64,000 nt of DNA, taken from Dysgonomonas mossii DSM 22836 (GTDB lineage: Bacteria > Bacteroidota > Bacteroidia > Bacteroidales > Dysgonomonadaceae). The stretch is from assembly GCF_000213575.1 (NCBI RefSeq), contig NZ_GL892007.1, positions 310,001 to 374,000 on the forward strand, written 5' to 3'. Numbering within the stretch: position 1 is the first letter of the stretch; each line of letters starts with the position of its first letter. A program made the position numbers and the translations under genes. The notes beneath the pieces are model-generated. The model was not told the DNA's origin, searched no databases, and worked only from the letters and a program-made list of their open reading frames with translations. Of this stretch, positions 43,057-52,390 are shown piece by piece.

Positions 43057-43593
43057 TTAAAAATTAATTTGCCATTCGGTTACTTTTTCACCTTTTTTAT
43101 ATTGCTCAAACATGCAATTCCGTGATTTTATATCAAGTTCAATATAGTATCCCCATATATAACGACAAACATGTTCTGGTAAAGCCATTCCATCATAAGA
43201 CCAAATGTTATCATAACTATCTTTTGTTAAAGCTCTTAATCTTTTACGATCATTGATTTTCTCTTCTTGAGGTCTACTTGACTTCTTCATTTCAATTGCA
43301 ATGAGATTATCTTGCAGAGTATTATTTCCTCTACTATGTAATATTACATCACAATTCACAGTAACAACCTCCATATTCTCATCTAATATAGTTTTAACTT
43401 TGCCTTGATTTCTATTGTATTCTGCATCGGCATAATAGCCATTTATCTTATTCTTTTTTGCCATACTTTCCAAGTAAATAGACAATCTTGCGCATAGATT
43501 CCTTTCATTAACATCTGATAATATGTTATCAATATCATTTTTGAAAAAGGTATCTATTGAATCTAAGAATAACTTATGTAATAATTTATCCAT
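43057..43593 (-). CDS. Orphan PD-(D/E)XK nuclease-like protein
   Basis: A 178-residue protein of no named family that I can give. The centre has the pattern of a PD-(D/E)XK nuclease: CDVILHSRG (Asp82), a strand, then NLIAIEMKKS (Glu101, Lys103). An upstream conserved-looking segment, ERNLCARLSIYLE, may supply the additional acidic residue. Its stop codon is 4 bp from the convergent HTH gene, and it interrupts an otherwise standard element backbone. Proteins with this pattern are common beside defence genes; a nuclease or repair function is inferred. Confidence 0.55.
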   Translation of the reverse strand: MDKLLHKLFLDSIDTFFKNDIDNILSDVNERNLCARLSIYLESMAKKNKINGYYADAEYNRNQGKVKTILDENMEVVTVNCDVILHSRGNNTLQDNLIAIEMKKSSRPQEEKINDRKRLRALTKDSYDNIWSYDGMALPEHVCRYIWGYYIELDIKSRNCMFEQYKKGEKVTEWQINF

Positions 43594-45152: not shown

Positions 45153-45207
45153 GATTTTGATTTTAAATGAGTAAATATTTGATTGTCAAATTAAAGGTAT
45201 GGAGTAT

Positions 45208-45243
45208 AAAAAAACTGCCACCCGTTTTTCATGCGAGTGACAG
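45208..45243 (-). terminator. Terminator of the restriction-like operon
   Basis: On the minus strand CTGTCACTCG pairs with CGGGTGGCAG (two wobble pairs, 9-nt loop) and is followed by seven T. It lies 29 bp past the vsr stop and insulates the operon from DUF3945. Confidence 0.85.
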
Positions 45244-45272
45244 CAGATGTCTTAGATTGGCGCTAGATGACC

Positions 45273-45695
45273 TTATTTTTTGATTTCTTCAATCAATCTA
45301 TCCAAACGATTATTTATGTTTACTTTGTTTTTTATTTCACATTGCCAAATGACAATAACATTCCATCCTTTTTCATTTAATTCATTTATATTGCGAAAGT
45401 CTCGTTCTATGTTTTTTGTGATTTTTTCTTGCCAAAACACATGATTTGCTTCAGGTAACCTACCCCTTTTGCATGAATGCCCATGCCAAAAACATCCATG
45501 AACAAATATAACAGTCTTATATTTAGGGAGTACAATATCAGGTTTTCCAGGTAGTTCTTTTACATTTTTTCTAAATCGAAAACCTCTTGAAAACAAAAAC
45601 TTTCGTACTAAAATCTCTGGCATAGTTTCTCTTCCTGAGATTTTAGACATAATATCAGAACGTTTTGATTTTGAATAGATATCTGACATATTCAA
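45273..45695 (-). CDS. vsr: Vsr-type very short patch repair endonuclease
   Basis: A 140-residue Vsr endonuclease: SKSKRSDIMSKISGRETMPE at the N-terminus, catalytic Asp53 in GKPDIVLPKYK, and the zinc-binding HGCFWHGHSC (residues 66-75). Vsr nicks T:G mismatches made by deamination of 5-methylcytosine at sites of the linked methyltransferase. It is the last gene of a six-gene operon and overlaps the HNH gene by 4 bp. In this family some members act as the restriction enzyme itself, so its role here could be repair or cleavage. Confidence 0.9.
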   Translation of the reverse strand: MNMSDIYSKSKRSDIMSKISGRETMPEILVRKFLFSRGFRFRKNVKELPGKPDIVLPKYKTVIFVHGCFWHGHSCKRGRLPEANHVFWQEKITKNIERDFRNINELNEKGWNVIVIWQCEIKNKVNINNRLDRLIEEIKK

Positions 45696-46447
45696 CTTTT
45701 GTTTATAAGAGATTTTAGCTCTTCAATAGTATATGACGGATTTCGCTTGTGTAACATTGAATGGCAGTTAGGACAAATAGGTACTAAATCTTTTTCTGGA
45801 TCAATAATATATTCATTTTTTATTTCTGATAACTGATTAATATGGTGAATATGAATGAATCCCTGTCCTATTAAACCATATGTTTTCTCAAAATCAAATC
45901 CACAAACACTGCAAATACACCCATATATTTCAATACACTTTTTCCTAGCAGATAAACTTCTTTGATATAAATATACTTCAGACTTTGATTTCTTTCCTTC
46001 TTTGTAAACCTGATATATCTCATCTAATCCGAAAATTGGTAATTTCTGTTCAGAAGGTTTCTTAGTAAGATCTAAAAAAGTCCATACAATTTTTATTGGT
46101 TTTTCCCCTTCAAATAATAAAGCATGTCCTAATCCTTTATATGTAAATGCATTTGACGAATTATTTCTGAAAAACATGTGAACATTAACCTCACTTGATA
46201 TCATCATTTTAATAAGTTTTTGTTCTTTATGCGAAGTCGCTTTCCCAAACCAGACTAATTTGTCTTTATCCCAATAATTACCATGATTAACACCAGTACG
46301 ACCAGCCGTACCTATGTTCGCAAATATATAAATATCTCCATTATAACTCCGATATCCTGTATCCCATGAACCTTTTTGACTTTCAAGTGGAACATTTAGC
46401 AAGTTATAGATGTCATTCTTTGTATACTCTTTCTCTATAATAAACAT
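45692..46447 (-). CDS. HNH endonuclease with N-terminal DUF3427-like domain
   Basis: A 251-residue protein. Residues about 1-130 resemble the DUF3427 type found on helicases and nucleases of restriction islands (YTKNDIYNLLN, NYWDKDKLVWFGKA, VHMFFRNN). The C-terminal HNH domain has zinc Cys pairs Cys179/Cys182 and Cys225/Cys228 and the catalytic FIHIHHINQL (His201/His202) and CPNCHSMLH. Probable DNA-cleaving subunit of the operon, cutting DNA that lacks (or carries) the methyl mark of the adjacent methyltransferase. It starts 6 bp after the receiver-domain gene. Confidence 0.82.
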   Translation of the reverse strand: MFIIEKEYTKNDIYNLLNVPLESQKGSWDTGYRSYNGDIYIFANIGTAGRTGVNHGNYWDKDKLVWFGKATSHKEQKLIKMMISSEVNVHMFFRNNSSNAFTYKGLGHALLFEGEKPIKIVWTFLDLTKKPSEQKLPIFGLDEIYQVYKEGKKSKSEVYLYQRSLSARKKCIEIYGCICSVCGFDFEKTYGLIGQGFIHIHHINQLSEIKNEYIIDPEKDLVPICPNCHSMLHKRNPSYTIEELKSLINKS

Positions 46448-46453
46448 ATTTAT

Positions 46454-48088
46454 TTAGTCTTCTTTTAAATGAGGGCAGATACGTTTAATATATTTTTCAC
46501 AAGAATCATCCGTCTCTCTTCGAACAAAGGAGATACCGACTCTAATCGGATTTGAGAAAGCTTTATTTGTTACTCGTTGTGTGTAATTTTCTTTAATTGT
46601 TCCAACAAACAAAAAATCGTAGATATCAGCACCAAATACTATAGAATTGACTTTGGATATATTTCTTTGATTTTCACATAGATATAGAGTAAATGGTTTA
46701 GTAGTCCATTCAACACAAACAATATCGTCTTTTTCTCTAATAAAAGAAAAATAACCACTATCTGAGTCAGATAATCCTCTGTCAATTGAAGTTTTATGTC
46801 CCTTGACAAAATAATACAACCCATTTATTTTGTCAGGTCTTAAACAGTCACAGTGCGGTGTAATACATAATACATATTCATTGTTTCCTTCTTTATCTAT
46901 TTTAAACATATCTCCAAATGAAATATTTCTATCAGAAGAACGACTATGATGTATATTATAATGATAGTTTAATTTAGCCAAATCATTATTGTCAACATCA
47001 TCTTCAGTCCCTTTTGTTTTTTTATAATCACTGAGAGTGTTAAATATCATAGGTTTATCAGTATAGAGGAAATCCGTATTGTAATTTTTCCACAATTCGA
47101 TAAGATATTCATCAAAAGCAGTCTCAGGTTCAATAGTATCCATATGGTGAAAAAAAGCCTTTTCTTTTATTTTACTTAATTCCTTTCCAATGAAAGAGGA
47201 TCTTTCAGAAACTTTATTTCTTATTTCCAAACTCATAAGAGTTAGGAAATTTTCTTTGGAATTTATTATTGCCTGGCAAAAGTGACTATATAAATCATCT
47301 GCATTGCTTTTACTTTTCTCAAATACTGCAAAGAGAGTGTTATTTATTTGTAAATAATTACTATTTGTATCGTACACTATATATGTGCTTTTAAATTCAC
47401 TTCTATAACAATATTCTTCATTTAGAGCAAATCCAAATCTTATAATAGAGTCGAATACCTTGTTACTAGAAAAAATATTATTTATATAGGCACGTACTTT
47501 CCCTTGATTTTTCCCAAATAAGTTAGAGAATTCAGTATTAAACAATTTGTTATCTATAGCTCCTAATGTTCTTCTTTTAAGTAGGTCTTTTAATCTAGGT
47601 AAGATATCATCAGTGTTTTCACCTAATTCATTTTCAACATATTCTTTGAAACTTGTAATATCAGCAATTGCCTTTGTCTTTTCATTCCCACAATAGTAGG
47701 CTAATATTTTATAATGTATTTCCTGAGTCGCATTAGGTGTTAAAGAATAGATACAAACAAAGTGCAAATTATCTGTCCTAACTGCGCCATCGATTATTTC
47801 AAGTGTAGACCTATACTTTGGAACTTCATTTTCAAGCTCCCAATCTAGCACAACCAGATCTTTTCTTTCAAAGATTAACTTGCTTTTTGTAGCCCAATCT
47901 TTTGTGAATTTAAAAAAATCAAGAGAACATTGATTAGCCTGAAAAGATTCATACATAGGTTGACAAATGGCTTCTTTATCTTCTTCGGAGCTAAATAAAC
48001 CAGGTATCATATCATCAATAAAAATAGCCGACTTTATTGATTCATTGATGATAGATTGAGCAACATTTTGAAATGATAAAGCTTCCAT
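46454..48088 (-). CDS. Receiver-like domain protein of the restriction-like operon
   Basis: A 544-residue protein. The first 130 residues have the features of a response-regulator receiver fold: acidic pair FIDD (Asp25, Asp26), a strand ending LVVLDWEL (candidate phospho-acceptor Asp82), and a following strand VCIYSLT (switch Ser/Thr). This corresponds to the divergent Response_reg_2-type receiver seen beside unusual GHKL ATPases. The remaining 400 residues show no domain I know; a cysteine/histidine cluster ITPHCDCLRPDK is notable near residue 420. It starts 2 bp after the double-GHKL gene, so they are coupled partners. Confidence 0.7.
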   Translation of the reverse strand: MEALSFQNVAQSIINESIKSAIFIDDMIPGLFSSEEDKEAICQPMYESFQANQCSLDFFKFTKDWATKSKLIFERKDLVVLDWELENEVPKYRSTLEIIDGAVRTDNLHFVCIYSLTPNATQEIHYKILAYYCGNEKTKAIADITSFKEYVENELGENTDDILPRLKDLLKRRTLGAIDNKLFNTEFSNLFGKNQGKVRAYINNIFSSNKVFDSIIRFGFALNEEYCYRSEFKSTYIVYDTNSNYLQINNTLFAVFEKSKSNADDLYSHFCQAIINSKENFLTLMSLEIRNKVSERSSFIGKELSKIKEKAFFHHMDTIEPETAFDEYLIELWKNYNTDFLYTDKPMIFNTLSDYKKTKGTEDDVDNNDLAKLNYHYNIHHSRSSDRNISFGDMFKIDKEGNNEYVLCITPHCDCLRPDKINGLYYFVKGHKTSIDRGLSDSDSGYFSFIREKDDIVCVEWTTKPFTLYLCENQRNISKVNSIVFGADIYDFLFVGTIKENYTQRVTNKAFSNPIRVGISFVRRETDDSCEKYIKRICPHLKED

Positions 48089-48090
48089 AT

Positions 48091-51036
48091 TTAATTATCT
48101 TGAGTTTTTGAAAAATTTGTATCAATAACAAAACAAGCACCATTCAATTTGTTATATTCAAGTTCATTTGTAGCATACATATCGTATCCAACACTGTTGA
48201 GAGTTTCTTTGGCTAAAAAAAGACCTATTCCTCTACCATTAGGCTTTTTAGAATAAAAAAGATTAAATATTTCATTCAGATAAAAATCTTCAATCGATAC
48301 TCCCGAGTTAAGAATTAAAATTTTGGAGTTATCAACATAATCTAAGTATATTCTGCGATTTTCTACGGGCGTAAGCCAGTAAATCGCATTATGTACAACA
48401 TTAACGAAAGCCGGTAGTAAAATAGATTCATATGTAAAGAATGAAGCATGTTCAAATGCCAATGAAGAATTTAATGTAATATTACGATCTTTTAGTTGAC
48501 TATTAAAGAATAATTTAAGATAAGTAGTGATTTCCGATCCTACAATATTTTTGCGCACCTTACCTGTAGTTCTATACAAAGGGGACATCAATTTGTATTT
48601 ATCTTCCAAATGCTCAAACGCAGTTTTTAATGATAAGTAATTTCTCTGTGCTTTTTCATCTGTTGGTAAATGATCGTTAATTTGAGTAATTGCATAGGCA
48701 ACCTGTGAGTAAAGAGCATTAAACTGATGGTCTATTATTTCAACAGCAATTCCCATCTGAGCTAACTCTTTAGTTTGTTGCCATTGTTTTTCTATATCTT
48801 CATAACGTATTTTATAATAGCCAGTAAGAGCTTCTTCGTCTACATCCAAACTCAATCGATCTAAATGATTAAAAAAAGGAATAATTCTTTCATTTGCCTT
48901 TTTCATTAAATCATTATATATATTCTCAAGTAAATTCAAACTTTGTAGAATATCGTCTCGATTATAAGATGTTGGTTTTATAGCTGTATATTTTTCGTCT
49001 AATTCGGCAATATATATATCATTTTTTTCTTCAAGAATTTTTGATTTTATTTTATCAACTGATCCAGATATTTTCTCAATGGATTCATCAAATACATTCG
49101 ATATAAAAGATCGATATTGACTGTATTTAGCTTCAAATTCTTTATATAACTCATAATCCTTTAATTGATTTCTTGCTTTATCTATTATTTCTTGAGAGGA
49201 TGTTACTCGTTCTTCAATCACTTTCTCATAATATCTATTGTAGTTATAAAGAGATTTTTGTTGACTCTCAGTTAAAGCAAATCGAATAGGTTTACTCAGA
49301 GCCAAACGTCTAATTTTAGCTTTACATTCTTCAATTTTTTTCAGGATTAGATCGATGTCATTAAACAACAAATCAGATTCGGCTTGTTTATCCAACAATT
49401 GATTTAGTAACACACTGAATTCATTTTCTATATCTGATAACTGCTTAGGATATTCTTTTAGTTTCTTAGCATATTGTTTCCTTAGTTCTTTTTCTTTTTC
49501 ATGCTCAGCTTGTTTATTTTTAGCAGCTTCTTCTATTTCATCTTTCTGTGTTCTTTTAATATCAGATTCTGCATGTGTTCCGAAATACATATTAGCAAGA
49601 TCAATAAAAAAAGCCTCTAAGTCTGCTTTGAACTCTCTATAAGCAACATTGTTTATAAAACCTTCTCGTCCGGCTTTATCAGTTAACTTTTTATTGTTTT
49701 CTCGCGATATTTCGATATAGCCAAACATTCTACGGTGACTAAAGAAATACTTTCCTGCGTGTTTAGATCTTCGGTTTTCAAATCGTAAGAAATCTGTTTC
49801 AGTCCTCCCATATGGGAGGACTCTAAATCCGTCTCTATAAATATACAGCCCTCCAAATAAATTTAGCCTTTCATCATAAACTTTATATAACTCCTCAGTC
49901 AGCAAAGATTCGGATGGTATACCAACTATAACCCCAAGTTTTATCTTAAATTTACCATAAGGAGTTTTGCCTGGTTTTCTAACAGCACGAAAAGAATGAT
50001 CAACTTCCTTATTGTATATTTTTATTTTCCCCGAGAATGTACCATCTTCATCAAAACCTCCATAAATTAAGTGATCGCTCAAATTGAAATCATGTGGTGT
50101 GAAAAATTCTCGACTAGAAATTAAATCTCGTTCTCCCTTCTCATCTACAATAACAAACTTTGTAGAAACTCCTATATTTTCTTCTTTAAATACATTAAAT
50201 AAACCATTTAAGCTACTTCTGATTTCCTGCACCGTTGCATCATACTCTGGATATAAATCTTTTTGGTTATATTTAGACAATATAATCAGTTGTTCATCTG
50301 GTTTAAATACAACAAACTTGGTGCCATGAATATTTGTCGAAGTGCCTGTAATAGAAGTAACAAATTCTTGAGAAAAGAAGTCTGGAAGTTGAATATTCTT
50401 AATGTCCGAAATTATATTTAATGCTAGATCTTTTTGTTCTACCCATGAGTTAATTAAATTCCCTTCATTTATACCTTCATTCTTTTTTTTAAGGAAATTG
50501 GCAATAAACTCTTCTTTTAATTCATTAAAAACTACATCAAAATTACTGTCTGGATTAATTGCTCTTAGCGGTATATTTATGTCTTCAATATACAAATTAT
50601 AGTTTTCCAGAATACGCCAGTCAATAAATAAAACCTGCAATGGGTGTCCAACTTTTTTTGTAAGCATTAGCATTGGACTGCCGAGATATGCTACAGATAG
50701 ACGTCCAATTCCTTTTTCTCCCATTCTTATTCGAGGTTCCTTCCATAATGTTTCCTCTCCCTTTTCTTCTAGTTCATTTCTTGACTTTGAGTCAGTACCT
50801 AAAACAATCCATTTTTCAAGTATATCTTCTCTCGACATACCTTTTCCATCGTCTGACAATACAAAGAACGGAGATTTGACATTGTTAACATTCTCTATAT
50901 ATAGATATGCTTCCAGTTTATCTCCATAAGCATCATATCCGTTCTTCCACAACTCAGATATTGCAGTTGGTAAGTCTGAAATTTGACCTTTCCCTAGTAA
51001 ATCTATTGCTCTAGCTTTCGCTCTAAATTGAGGCAT
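48091..51036 (-). CDS. Double-GHKL ATPase: MORC/HSP90-like head, coiled coil, histidine-kinase-like tail
   Basis: A 981-residue protein. The N-terminal GHKL ATPase has the Bergerat motifs ISELWKNGYDA (Glu28, Asn32), DDGKGM (62-67) and GEKGIGRLS (106-114), as in MORC, MutL and HSP90 proteins. A transducer-like region (about 240-460) and a long coiled coil (about 495-720) follow. The C-terminus is kinase-like: helix VEIIDHQFNAL with His770 in H-box position, N-box FVNVVHNAIYWL (Asn883) and G2 box NGRGIGLFLAK (934-941). The G1 box reads NSGVS, not DxGxG, so the second ATPase may be weak or inactive. It lies between the methyltransferase and the receiver-domain gene. No membrane segment. Confidence 0.8.
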   Translation of the reverse strand: MPQFRAKARAIDLLGKGQISDLPTAISELWKNGYDAYGDKLEAYLYIENVNNVKSPFFVLSDDGKGMSREDILEKWIVLGTDSKSRNELEEKGEETLWKEPRIRMGEKGIGRLSVAYLGSPMLMLTKKVGHPLQVLFIDWRILENYNLYIEDINIPLRAINPDSNFDVVFNELKEEFIANFLKKKNEGINEGNLINSWVEQKDLALNIISDIKNIQLPDFFSQEFVTSITGTSTNIHGTKFVVFKPDEQLIILSKYNQKDLYPEYDATVQEIRSSLNGLFNVFKEENIGVSTKFVIVDEKGERDLISSREFFTPHDFNLSDHLIYGGFDEDGTFSGKIKIYNKEVDHSFRAVRKPGKTPYGKFKIKLGVIVGIPSESLLTEELYKVYDERLNLFGGLYIYRDGFRVLPYGRTETDFLRFENRRSKHAGKYFFSHRRMFGYIEISRENNKKLTDKAGREGFINNVAYREFKADLEAFFIDLANMYFGTHAESDIKRTQKDEIEEAAKNKQAEHEKEKELRKQYAKKLKEYPKQLSDIENEFSVLLNQLLDKQAESDLLFNDIDLILKKIEECKAKIRRLALSKPIRFALTESQQKSLYNYNRYYEKVIEERVTSSQEIIDKARNQLKDYELYKEFEAKYSQYRSFISNVFDESIEKISGSVDKIKSKILEEKNDIYIAELDEKYTAIKPTSYNRDDILQSLNLLENIYNDLMKKANERIIPFFNHLDRLSLDVDEEALTGYYKIRYEDIEKQWQQTKELAQMGIAVEIIDHQFNALYSQVAYAITQINDHLPTDEKAQRNYLSLKTAFEHLEDKYKLMSPLYRTTGKVRKNIVGSEITTYLKLFFNSQLKDRNITLNSSLAFEHASFFTYESILLPAFVNVVHNAIYWLTPVENRRIYLDYVDNSKILILNSGVSIEDFYLNEIFNLFYSKKPNGRGIGLFLAKETLNSVGYDMYATNELEYNKLNGACFVIDTNFSKTQDN

Positions 51037-51046
51037 ATCTTTCTAA

Positions 51047-52087
51047 TTAAGTATTTATAATAACATCTCCTAATCGGCGTGCATATTCAGGAGGTACAGC
51101 ATTGCCTATAAGTTTGGCTGTTGATTGCATACTTATTGTTTTGAAAATATAATTTTCAGGAAATGTTTGCAATGTTGCTCCTTCTCTCAAAGATATTGCT
51201 CTATCTTGTTCTGGATGAGCAAAACGACCATTAGAAATATTAAAAAACTTTGTTGTAATTGTTGATGATGGTTTTTTCCAAGACAATCTACCATAAACAT
51301 CTTTAAAACAATTATCCTTTCCAATATAGCATGCTAATTGTAACTCCGGATCATTTTTCCATCCCATACGTGTTCCTCCATCTTTGTCCGTTTTTGCAAG
51401 TCTTTTTAAATTGATTTGATTTAGTCCAGCGGTTGTGTGATTGAAATCCGAAACATCTTTATGTCCAGCAGGGATTACAGGAAAACCTTTTTCTGGGGAA
51501 ATGTAATCTATCAATAAAGCCTGTTTTTCCTCTTTTGGAGGGAGTGATATGGGTTTTACTCTTGATGCAATAAGAGAAAAGCGTTTACGAGATTGAGGTA
51601 CGCCATAATAACTCATATCTATTATTTTTTGTTCAATATATGTATAACCTTTATTTTGAAGAAATTCCAAAAATTCAGGTAATACGCTATCTTTTCTTGT
51701 CATCAATCCAGGTACATTTTCTACTAACACATAACCAGGATTATAGTAATCAATGAAGCGACTGAAATCTAATAATAAATCTTTGGATTTCTGAGATTTT
51801 TCTTTTTTTGTGTTAATTATACTATAATATTGACAAGGACTACAACCTACAAGTATTAAATGATCATCATTTTTATTAATATTTAAATGCTTTTCAAAAT
51901 AATCACTTGGTAATTGAGTTACATCAGAATAAATAAATTTTGAACCGATATTATTATATTCATAAGTTTCCTTCGCATCTTTATCAAAATCAACTCCAGC
52001 TACAACCTCAATACCTGCTAAGCGAAGACCACACGTCATACCTCCACCACCACAAAAGAAATCAATTGCTTTATATTTTTTTTTCAT
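51047..52087 (-). CDS. DNA (cytosine-5) methyltransferase
   Basis: A 346-residue C5 methyltransferase with all core motifs: I DFFCGGGGMTCGLRLAG, IV GCSPCQYYS (catalytic Cys85), VI VLVENVPG (Glu123), VIII YGVPQSRKRF, IX SSTITTKFFNISNGRFAHP, X KLIGNAVPPEYARRLG. The target-recognition region lies at about 190-270; specificity is not readable from sequence. It would protect host DNA and is encoded with a Vsr and an HNH nuclease. Spacing to the XRE gene upstream is 4 bp and to the ATPase gene downstream 10 bp. Confidence 0.95.
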   Translation of the reverse strand: MKKKYKAIDFFCGGGGMTCGLRLAGIEVVAGVDFDKDAKETYEYNNIGSKFIYSDVTQLPSDYFEKHLNINKNDDHLILVGCSPCQYYSIINTKKEKSQKSKDLLLDFSRFIDYYNPGYVLVENVPGLMTRKDSVLPEFLEFLQNKGYTYIEQKIIDMSYYGVPQSRKRFSLIASRVKPISLPPKEEKQALLIDYISPEKGFPVIPAGHKDVSDFNHTTAGLNQINLKRLAKTDKDGGTRMGWKNDPELQLACYIGKDNCFKDVYGRLSWKKPSSTITTKFFNISNGRFAHPEQDRAISLREGATLQTFPENYIFKTISMQSTAKLIGNAVPPEYARRLGDVIINT

Positions 52088-52091
52088 TATA

Positions 52092-52307
52092 CTATTCCTT
52101 TATTTTTGTTGATACAAATAAATCTTTAACATCAACATCAAGAATACCTGCTATATCGATAAATGTTTCGATGTTTGGCTGTTTCTCATTAGTACACCAT
52201 CTGGAAATAGTCGATTCTGTTTTTCCCAATTGTGCAGCCAGCCATTTATTTGTTAATCTTTTCTCTGCAAGAATAACCTTTATTCGATTAATTGCTCTCT
52301 CTGACAT
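52092..52307 (-). CDS. XRE-family regulator heading the restriction-like operon
   Basis: A 71-residue protein starting at MSERAINRIK; an in-frame upstream TTG would add 7 residues and seems less likely. XRE HTH: RLTNKWLAAQLGKTESTISRWCTNEKQPNIETFIDIAGIL. It resembles controller (C) proteins of restriction-modification systems, which delay nuclease expression until methylation is complete. It is the first gene, 4 bp before the methyltransferase. Confidence 0.85.
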   Translation of the reverse strand: MSERAINRIKVILAEKRLTNKWLAAQLGKTESTISRWCTNEKQPNIETFIDIAGILDVDVKDLFVSTKIKE

Positions 52308-52390
52308 ATATATTGTTCTTGTGTGCAAATTTATTGTTTCCTTTTCATAAATACAAACGCAATATAGCTAACTTATCAACACTAAGATAT

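What the first reader, a model, noticed from the sequence alone, without database searches (positions are those of the whole stretch)
45273..52328. Possible new defence system: restriction-modification operon with an embedded two-component-like pair
Six tightly packed genes on one strand (gaps of 4, 10, 2 and 6 bp and one 4-bp overlap) encode, in order, an XRE controller, C5 methyltransferase, a 981-residue double-GHKL ATPase, a receiver-domain protein, a DUF3427-like/HNH nuclease and Vsr, closed by a strong terminator. Methyltransferase, HNH and Vsr alone would be a plain type II system. The ATPase/receiver pair sits between the methyltransferase and the nuclease, suggesting it gates or targets cleavage by ATP-driven clamping, by phosphotransfer, or both. 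Vsr-linked islands with MutL/MORC-like ATPases have been predicted from comparative genomics, but I know no characterised system with this set.
Basis: partly seen in the sequence, partly recalled or inferred. Interest (0 to 1): 0.9.

Follow-up and report, generated by a model that had tools for sequence, protein, structure and literature searches.

The report
Methylase–kinase–receiver restriction operon
A mobile DNA element in a Bacteroidota genome carries a six-gene set that probably marks its own DNA with methyl groups and attacks unmarked invading DNA under the control of a fused DNA-clamp/kinase protein and a receiver partner; this kind of gene pair was predicted in 2021 and I found no experimental test of it.

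Summary
In detail: XRE, C5 methyltransferase (MT), 981-aa ATPase, receiver protein, DUF3427-like HNH nuclease and Vsr, tightly packed, with a terminator behind.

It is not a new kind. The ATPase is HATPase_c_3–HEF_HK–HATPase_c and the receiver is Response_reg_2; that pair, beside C5 MTs, HNH and Vsr genes (Bacteroides included), was published as a prediction in 2021 (PMC8011034). I found no experimental test.

- In 40 related loci the constant unit is MT–kinase–receiver (MT near the kinase in 36, receiver adjacent in 39). The fourth gene changes. A nuclease-type gene was recognised in 17, Vsr in 7, neither in 19 (11 of those 19 with good flanks). So the "embedded pair" is part of the core; HNH and Vsr are accessories.
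- The operon fills a cargo slot; two related elements carry other defence-type genes there.

Most likely: methylation-based restriction in which the clamp-kinase detects unmethylated DNA and releases the nuclease through the receiver (detection and phosphotransfer inferred).

The parts
52092..52328 (-). XRE/Cro-type controller-like regulator, 78 aa (TTG start)
   Evidence: HTH_26 1.9e-9, HTH_3 2.8e-9; 4 bp before the MT gene
51047..52087 (-). C5-cytosine DNA methyltransferase, 346 aa
   Evidence: DNA_methylase 1.3e-52; PCQ at 84, ENVPG at 123, GNAVPP at 328 (that these are the catalytic motifs is recalled)
48091..51036 (-). paraMORC-type histidine kinase (clamp-kinase), 981 aa
   Evidence: HATPase_c_3 + HEF_HK + HATPase_c; AlphaFold2 model mean pLDDT 75, pTM 0.53
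49549..51033 (-). N-terminal MORC-like clamp module (residues 2-496) with ExxxN (E28, N32)
48562..48759 (-). HEF_HK dimerisation/phospho-acceptor helices with H770 (codon 48727-48729)
   Evidence: PF19191 residues 760-825; H770 54/54; model confidence is low over 751-769
48118..48561 (-). C-terminal kinase-type ATP-binding domain (residues 826-973) with NxxxN
46454..48088 (-). Response_reg_2 receiver protein with unassigned C-terminal output part, 544 aa
   Evidence: PF19192 6.8e-26; model mean pLDDT 81, pTM 0.73
47270..48043 (-). Receiver fold (residues 16-273) with D25/D26, D82 (codon 47843-47845), S115, K258 and a helical insertion before the last strand
45692..46447 (-). HNH nuclease with N-terminal DUF3427-like part, 251 aa
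   Evidence: DUF3427 residues 2-108 and HNH residues 179-235; HNH part aligns to EcoKMcrA 6ghc, E 0.014
45273..45695 (-). Vsr mismatch endonuclease, 140 aa (TTG start)
   Evidence: Vsr 2.5e-36; TIGR00632 3.8e-43
45205..45260 (-). Intrinsic terminator behind the operon, in DNA shared with the related element L135
   Evidence: 11-bp stem, 7 U, -15.7 kcal/mol, z -2.78; flank match reaches 45269
45270..52390 (.). Cargo slot of the mobile element (left edge 45167 against L134, 45270 against L135)
   Evidence: Both flanks match L134 and L135 at 78-79%, other genes lie between

Best explanation
A mobile-element-borne, methylation-based restriction/defence operon. The MT marks host DNA (C5 family shown; target unknown). 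The 981-aa protein is a MORC/MutL-like ATP-driven clamp fused to a histidine kinase; the likely cycle is that the clamp loads on DNA, meets unmethylated target DNA, and the clamp state switches the kinase on (inferred). H770 then phosphorylates D82 of the receiver (residues conserved, transfer inferred), and the receiver's unassigned C-terminal part releases or recruits an exchangeable effector, here the DUF3427-HNH nuclease (inferred). Vsr repairs T:G mismatches left by deaminated 5-methylcytosine (established knowledge of Vsr). XRE times expression as in other R-M operons (inferred).
Against: No activity was tested. The receiver's C-terminal part has no recognised family (38 proteins scanned), so the output step is a guess. 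19 of 40 loci show no recognised nuclease-type gene or Vsr within five ORFs, 11 of them with good flanks, so a linked nuclease cannot be general. HNH_2 does track the MT weakly (r 0.36, reached by 6 of 500 permutations, 11 loci), which is what an ordinary type II partner would do. The window's kinase has Gln after the His (50 of 54 have Glu, 3 Gln, 1 Asp). PADLOC 2023 has no match to the pair.
Confidence: 0.5

Rival explanations
1. Two-component regulation only: MT and HNH form a plain type II R-M system and the pair controls its expression, as the 2021 authors suggested.
For: The 2021 paper speculates about signalling that controls R-M systems directly or indirectly; the receiver fold is sound; HNH_2 tracks the MT weakly.
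Against: No DNA-binding family recognised in the receiver's C-terminal part (38 scanned); an XRE regulator is already present; a MORC-type clamp with an intact hydrolase site is odd for a plain sensor kinase; 11 loci with good flanks have no recognised nuclease-type gene or Vsr within five ORFs to regulate.
Confidence: 0.2
2. The MT-kinase-receiver trio is itself the defence machine: the MORC-like clamp traps or compacts unmethylated DNA and silences it without cutting; nucleases are optional extras.
For: 11 of 40 loci with good flanks and no recognised nuclease-type gene or Vsr within five ORFs; on a Pantoea plasmid the annotated neighbours of the trio are metabolic and transport genes (that table is incomplete); MORC3 and SMCHD1 fold match; C. 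elegans MORC-1 entraps and condenses DNA (abstract of PMC8277788, listing).
Against: 21 of 40 loci do carry a nuclease-type gene or Vsr; unlinked or unrecognised nucleases are not excluded (only 25 of 117 Pfam families among the neighbours were listed); of the 11 loci, L056 has only a kinase remnant, L043 carries another candidate effector pair, and L052 has an HNH_2 and a Vsr six ORFs away.
Confidence: 0.13
3. The HNH protein is a type IV, modification-dependent nuclease (SRA-like reader plus HNH), so the operon also attacks foreign methylated DNA.
For: DUF3427 was proposed as the substrate-recognising part of SauUSI, an m5C-dependent enzyme (PMC3874153), whose C-terminal recognition domain has an SRA fold (PMC7913695); the HNH part resembles EcoKMcrA.
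Against: It shares an operon with a C5 MT, and 4 of 5 examined genes matching over both parts (window, L062, L171, L173; not L170) have a C5 MT close by, so it would endanger its own host. A sixth, plasmid hit H34 (80% covered), was not examined.
Confidence: 0.1
4. Addiction cassette with no notable antiviral role that keeps the mobile element in place.
For: Cargo of a mobile element; R-M genes can act as selfish elements (discussed in PMC8011034).
Against: Cargo of the two relatives is of defence type; the kinase and receiver are conserved in their active sites.
Confidence: 0.05

Closest known systems
HEF_HK / Response_reg_2 two-component-like pair beside type II R-M (Bellieny-Rabelo 2021, PMC8011034; text parts 1-5 of 7 read)
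   Same: Same two Pfam domains, same commonest architecture (HATPase_c_3+HEF_HK+HATPase_c), C5 MT upstream, HNH and Vsr neighbours, Bacteroides among hosts
   Different: That work named HNH_2 as the best-represented endonuclease domain; here the effector is a DUF3427-HNH, seen in one other organism (Niabella) among the 41 loci.
paraMORC/MORC ATPases of R-M operons (Iyer 2008, PMC2292703; passages and sections 5-6 read)
   Same: N-terminal GHKL plus S5-like module; DNA methylases, Vsr and endonucleases as neighbours
   Different: The parts read describe no kinase module or receiver partner
VcSduA, Shedu type I-D, earlier paraMORC3 (PMC12137116; passages read)
   Same: N-terminal GHKL ATPase proposed to control a DNA nuclease; antiphage activity shown there
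   Different: Nuclease (DUF4263) in the same chain; no MT or receiver mentioned in the passages read
SauUSI (PMC7913695, passages read) and SRA-HNH enzymes such as TagI (PMC6212794, start of abstract in a listing)
   Same: DUF3427/SRA-like reader in SauUSI; SRA plus HNH in TagI
   Different: Modification-dependent; SauUSI is an ATP-dependent PLD-type nuclease
Detocs (recalled; only the name appears, in a listing)
   Same: Works-like: a two-component relay used in phage defence (recalled)
   Different: Different proteins (recalled); not compared here

Membership tests
HEF_HK/Response_reg_2 pair beside R-M | HEF_HK (PF19191) and Response_reg_2 (PF19192) in adjacent genes | tested here: met
   81.8 bits (cut-off 24.1) and 91.9 bits (cut-off 27), genes 2 bp apart
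HEF_HK/Response_reg_2 pair beside R-M | Invariant His in HEF_HK and Asp in the receiver | tested here: met
   H770 54/54; D82 50/51, one gap
HEF_HK/Response_reg_2 pair beside R-M | C5 MT upstream; type II R-M neighbours | tested here: met
   MT 10 bp upstream; HNH and Vsr downstream
Two-component system | Histidine-kinase core and receiver folds | tested here: met
   [not shown]
Two-component system | His-to-Asp phosphotransfer | not testable with these tools
   Needs biochemistry
Two-component system | Known output domain on the regulator | tested here: inconclusive
   No Pfam family in the C-terminal part; the fold comparison filled with receiver matches
MORC/paraMORC ATPase | N-terminal GHKL plus S5 module with hydrolase Glu | tested here: met
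   [not shown]
MORC/paraMORC ATPase | ATP-dependent dimer clamp on DNA | not testable with these tools
   Needs biochemistry
Type II R-M system | MT with intact C5 motifs | tested here: met
   (motif meaning recalled)
Type II R-M system | Nuclease blocked by the MT's mark at the same site | not testable with these tools
   Target unknown
Type IV SRA-HNH nuclease | SRA-like reader plus HNH | tested here: inconclusive
   DUF3427 29.0 bits against cut-off 27.7 plus HNH; SRA fold inferred from SauUSI, not modelled here
Type IV SRA-HNH nuclease | Works without a cognate MT | tested here: not met
   C5 MT in the operon; 4 of 5 examined genes have one close by
Shedu type I-D | DUF4263 nuclease in the GHKL protein | tested here: not met
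   No DUF4263 in the Pfam scan of the 981-aa protein at E up to 1

The most novel reading that the evidence does not exclude
The MT-clamp-kinase-receiver trio is an autonomous immune core in which a MORC-type clamp senses missing methylation on DNA and reports it by phosphotransfer to the receiver; effectors (nucleases of unrelated families, or none, with silencing by DNA entrapment) are plug-ins. This would be a phosphorelay whose input is the methylation state of DNA. (Odds lowered from 0.25 after the recount.)
Probability: 0.22. Interest if true: 0.85.

Novelty: new member of a known kind. Interest (0 to 1): 0.5.

Why it matters
A kinase whose input side is a MORC-type DNA clamp would join two well-known machines, two-component signalling and methylation-based immunity, in one pathway. 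It could make testable how prokaryotic MORC relatives work (report DNA state, silence DNA, or guide nucleases) and so bear on the origin of eukaryotic MORC silencers. The pair is spread over phyla (9 of 395 sampled genomes of the window's phylum over the Response_reg_2 cut-off; 13 of 398 in a second phylum over the HEF_HK cut-off), and in the open-licence library I found no experimental work on it.

Tried and rejected
Naming the receiver's C-terminal part: PDB sequence search with one protein found nothing; the A1 profile gave only a weak receiver hit, 6ont E 0.14, and an unrelated retroaldolase, E 0.57; Pfam on 38 members gave only Response_reg_2 consistently; the fold comparison listed receivers only and barely tested other parts. 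Foldseek 'pdb' was never run.

A hidden nuclease in loci without a labelled one: 95 neighbours (up to two per side, 85 aa or more, not at the locus ends) of 26 loci, some with Vsr, were scanned; no nuclease family stands out among the 25 listed of 117 Pfam families, apart from a topoisomerase and a sub-cut-off SNase hit, so rarer ones may be hidden. Ten of them scanned singly gave no nuclease family. PADLOC on the same 95 gave only single hits, 25 of 51 families listed.

A monophyletic trio-MT lineage: inconclusive. The best clade held 31 of 51, the window lay outside it, and three trio MTs (L032, L040, L048) were mislabelled in that script. In one search the MT row of L048 is also the wrong gene, so MT correlations are slightly off. 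One search corrected the three and left seven divergent loci (L020, L021, L024, L104-L107) out of its means; its labelled loci were picked by hand.

Relatives of the HNH in viral contigs: none confirmed. The kinase in phage records: two partial hits. The outline of PMC12907096 (Caulobacter Vsr) was seen but not used.

Dropped as duplicates: L022, L023, L027, L063; L062 left out of alignments (fragmented).
Full report
Observation. The terminator is sound by folding though the simple scan did not list it; it lies in DNA that the related element L135 shares, so it may be the element's own.

Prior art. [quoted passage not shown] PMC2292703 (passages and sections 5-6) described paraMORC ATPases with methylases, Vsr and nucleases in 2008. 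A search for the domain names and accessions found 8 papers; a search for the 2021 paper's title phrase and DOI found that paper and two others. Going by titles and the starts of abstracts, none of these is an experimental test of the pair; nor did the listings show one (63 and 64 listed only 15 and 20 of 52). The library holds open-licence papers only.

The family. One scan of a genome collection with a receiver alignment gave 41 loci; 40 remain after removing one duplicate. The order MT, kinase, receiver recurs nearly everywhere. Counts: receiver next to kinase 39 of 40 (the exception, L062, is fragmented); C5 MT within three genes 36 of 40, 35 of them upstream on the same strand. The four misses are L028 and L057 (contig end), L039 (an N6-type methyltransferase lies downstream) and L056 (only a 131-aa kinase remnant). 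The loci were found through the receiver, so its presence is no result; the kinase beside it is.

Nuclease and Vsr. Within five ORFs of the kinase a nuclease-type gene was recognised in 17 of 40 (HNH_2 in 12, HNH_5 in 2, one of them with HNH_2, and NOV_C, PD-(D/E)XK_7, SLFN and an Eco57I-type gene in one each; the last two, and a HEPN gene in an HNH_2 locus, are generous calls). Vsr was there in 7 of 40, neither in 19. Of the 19, seven (L028, L033, L038, L055, L057, L060, L068) have less than 1.5 kb read on one side of the trio, and L062 has its HNH just out of reach because its genes are broken up. Eleven remain with good flanks; among these L056 has only a kinase remnant, L043 carries another candidate effector pair and L052 has an HNH_2 and a Vsr six ORFs away. 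HNH_2 was identified by Pfam in two proteins and by similarity for the rest.

Reciprocity. Among 395 genomes drawn from the window's phylum, all 9 with a Response_reg_2 match over the cut-off also have HEF_HK over its cut-off.

The fourth gene. Downstream, convergent or upstream genes include HNH_2 proteins (13-member cluster, its farthest downstream member five ORFs from the receiver), HNH_5, NOV_C, PD-(D/E)XK_7 with an AAA partner, a kinase/ORC-CDC6-like pair (two genera), an AbiU2-like HEPN hit under its cut-off, DUF6602 and unassigned genes. The window's DUF3427-HNH has a counterpart in one organism among the 41 loci (Niabella, two contigs of one assembly). Vsr may lie on either side. On plasmids the trio stands without an annotated nuclease (Pantoea), is followed by a Vsr (Rhizobium) or, in a shorter related form, faces a dcm gene (Campylobacter pTet); PLSDB gene tables are incomplete.

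Co-divergence. Distance matrices correlate best for kinase and receiver (r 0.91, 51 loci), then MT-Vsr (0.78, 13), MT-kinase (0.75, 51) and MT-receiver (0.68, 49), none of 500 permutations reaching these. HNH_2 gives 0.08 with the receiver (156 of 500), 0.25 with the kinase (36 of 500) and 0.36 with the MT (6 of 500), 11 loci. So HNH_2 follows the MT weakly, as a type II partner would, and not the receiver. Part of any such correlation is shared ancestry. The MT's target-recognition region keeps 54% mean identity (minimum 30%) among 32 hand-picked loci with unrelated fourth genes, against 66% in the catalytic part. In a type II system nuclease and MT must read the same site; a constant MT with changing nuclease families suggests that recognition lies in the core. 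This is suggestive, not proof.

The nuclease. Its N-terminal part matches DUF3427 over the cut-off, the part proposed to read DNA in SauUSI, whose C-terminal recognition domain is an SRA fold (passages). That raises the type IV rival. But of five examined genes that match over both parts, four have a C5 MT nearby (window, Niabella L062, L171, Priestia L173; not L170); one further plasmid hit (H34) was not examined. In L171 the set is DUF3427-HNH, C5 MT, a 653-aa GHKL ATPase and Vsr: the window's parts list with a plain ATPase and no kinase or receiver matched in the 15.5 kb read. So the clamp may be the shared engine and the kinase-receiver an elaboration.

The place. The operon lies between a gene that I read as a conjugation coupling protein (recalled, not scanned) and a gene similar to DUF4099/DUF3945 neighbours of other loci. 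One genome of the same genus (G806) and one of another genus of the same family (G840) match both flanks at 78-79% and hold 4.6-4.8 kb of other genes there: in G840 a PtuA/HNH-type pair (best PADLOC models PDC-M01A/B) with PD-Lambda-3_B; in G806 an XRE, two methyltransferases and an HNH. The slot is therefore a defence cargo site, which supports a defence role by association only.

Verdict. A well-formed member of a predicted and, as far as I found, untested family.

Noticed in passing
window 43057-43593 (-): A 178-aa protein matches PADLOC PD-Lambda-3_A (2.3e-10); a PD-Lambda-3_B match lies in the big cargo slot of the related element L134. In L134 the corresponding small slot holds a PDC-S39-like gene.
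   Followed up: partly
L134 5911-10663 and L135 3640-8244: Related mobile elements, other cargo in the same slot: PtuA-like ATPase plus HNH, or an XRE, two methyltransferases and an HNH.
   Followed up: yes
L171 7335-11745: DUF3427-HNH, C5 MT, plain 653-aa GHKL ATPase and Vsr without kinase or receiver: a natural comparison for what the pair adds.
   Followed up: partly
[not shown]
   Followed up: no
L043 11586-16414 and L064: Directly after the receiver, two genera carry a matching pair: an unassigned 387-405 aa protein and a 1200-aa protein; that of L043 has protein-kinase and ORC-CDC6-like parts (clusters).
   Followed up: no
L120 4986-9416 (Campylobacter coli plasmid pTet): A shorter kinase (about 730 aa) and receiver (331 aa, Response_reg 2.9e-5, under the cut-off) face a dcm gene; 27 of the 60 plasmid records with a kinase match are Campylobacter.
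   Followed up: partly
L032, L040, L056, L062: Kinase gene split over two ORFs (L032, L040), reduced to a remnant (L056) or in fragments (L062): decay or sequencing errors.
   Followed up: no
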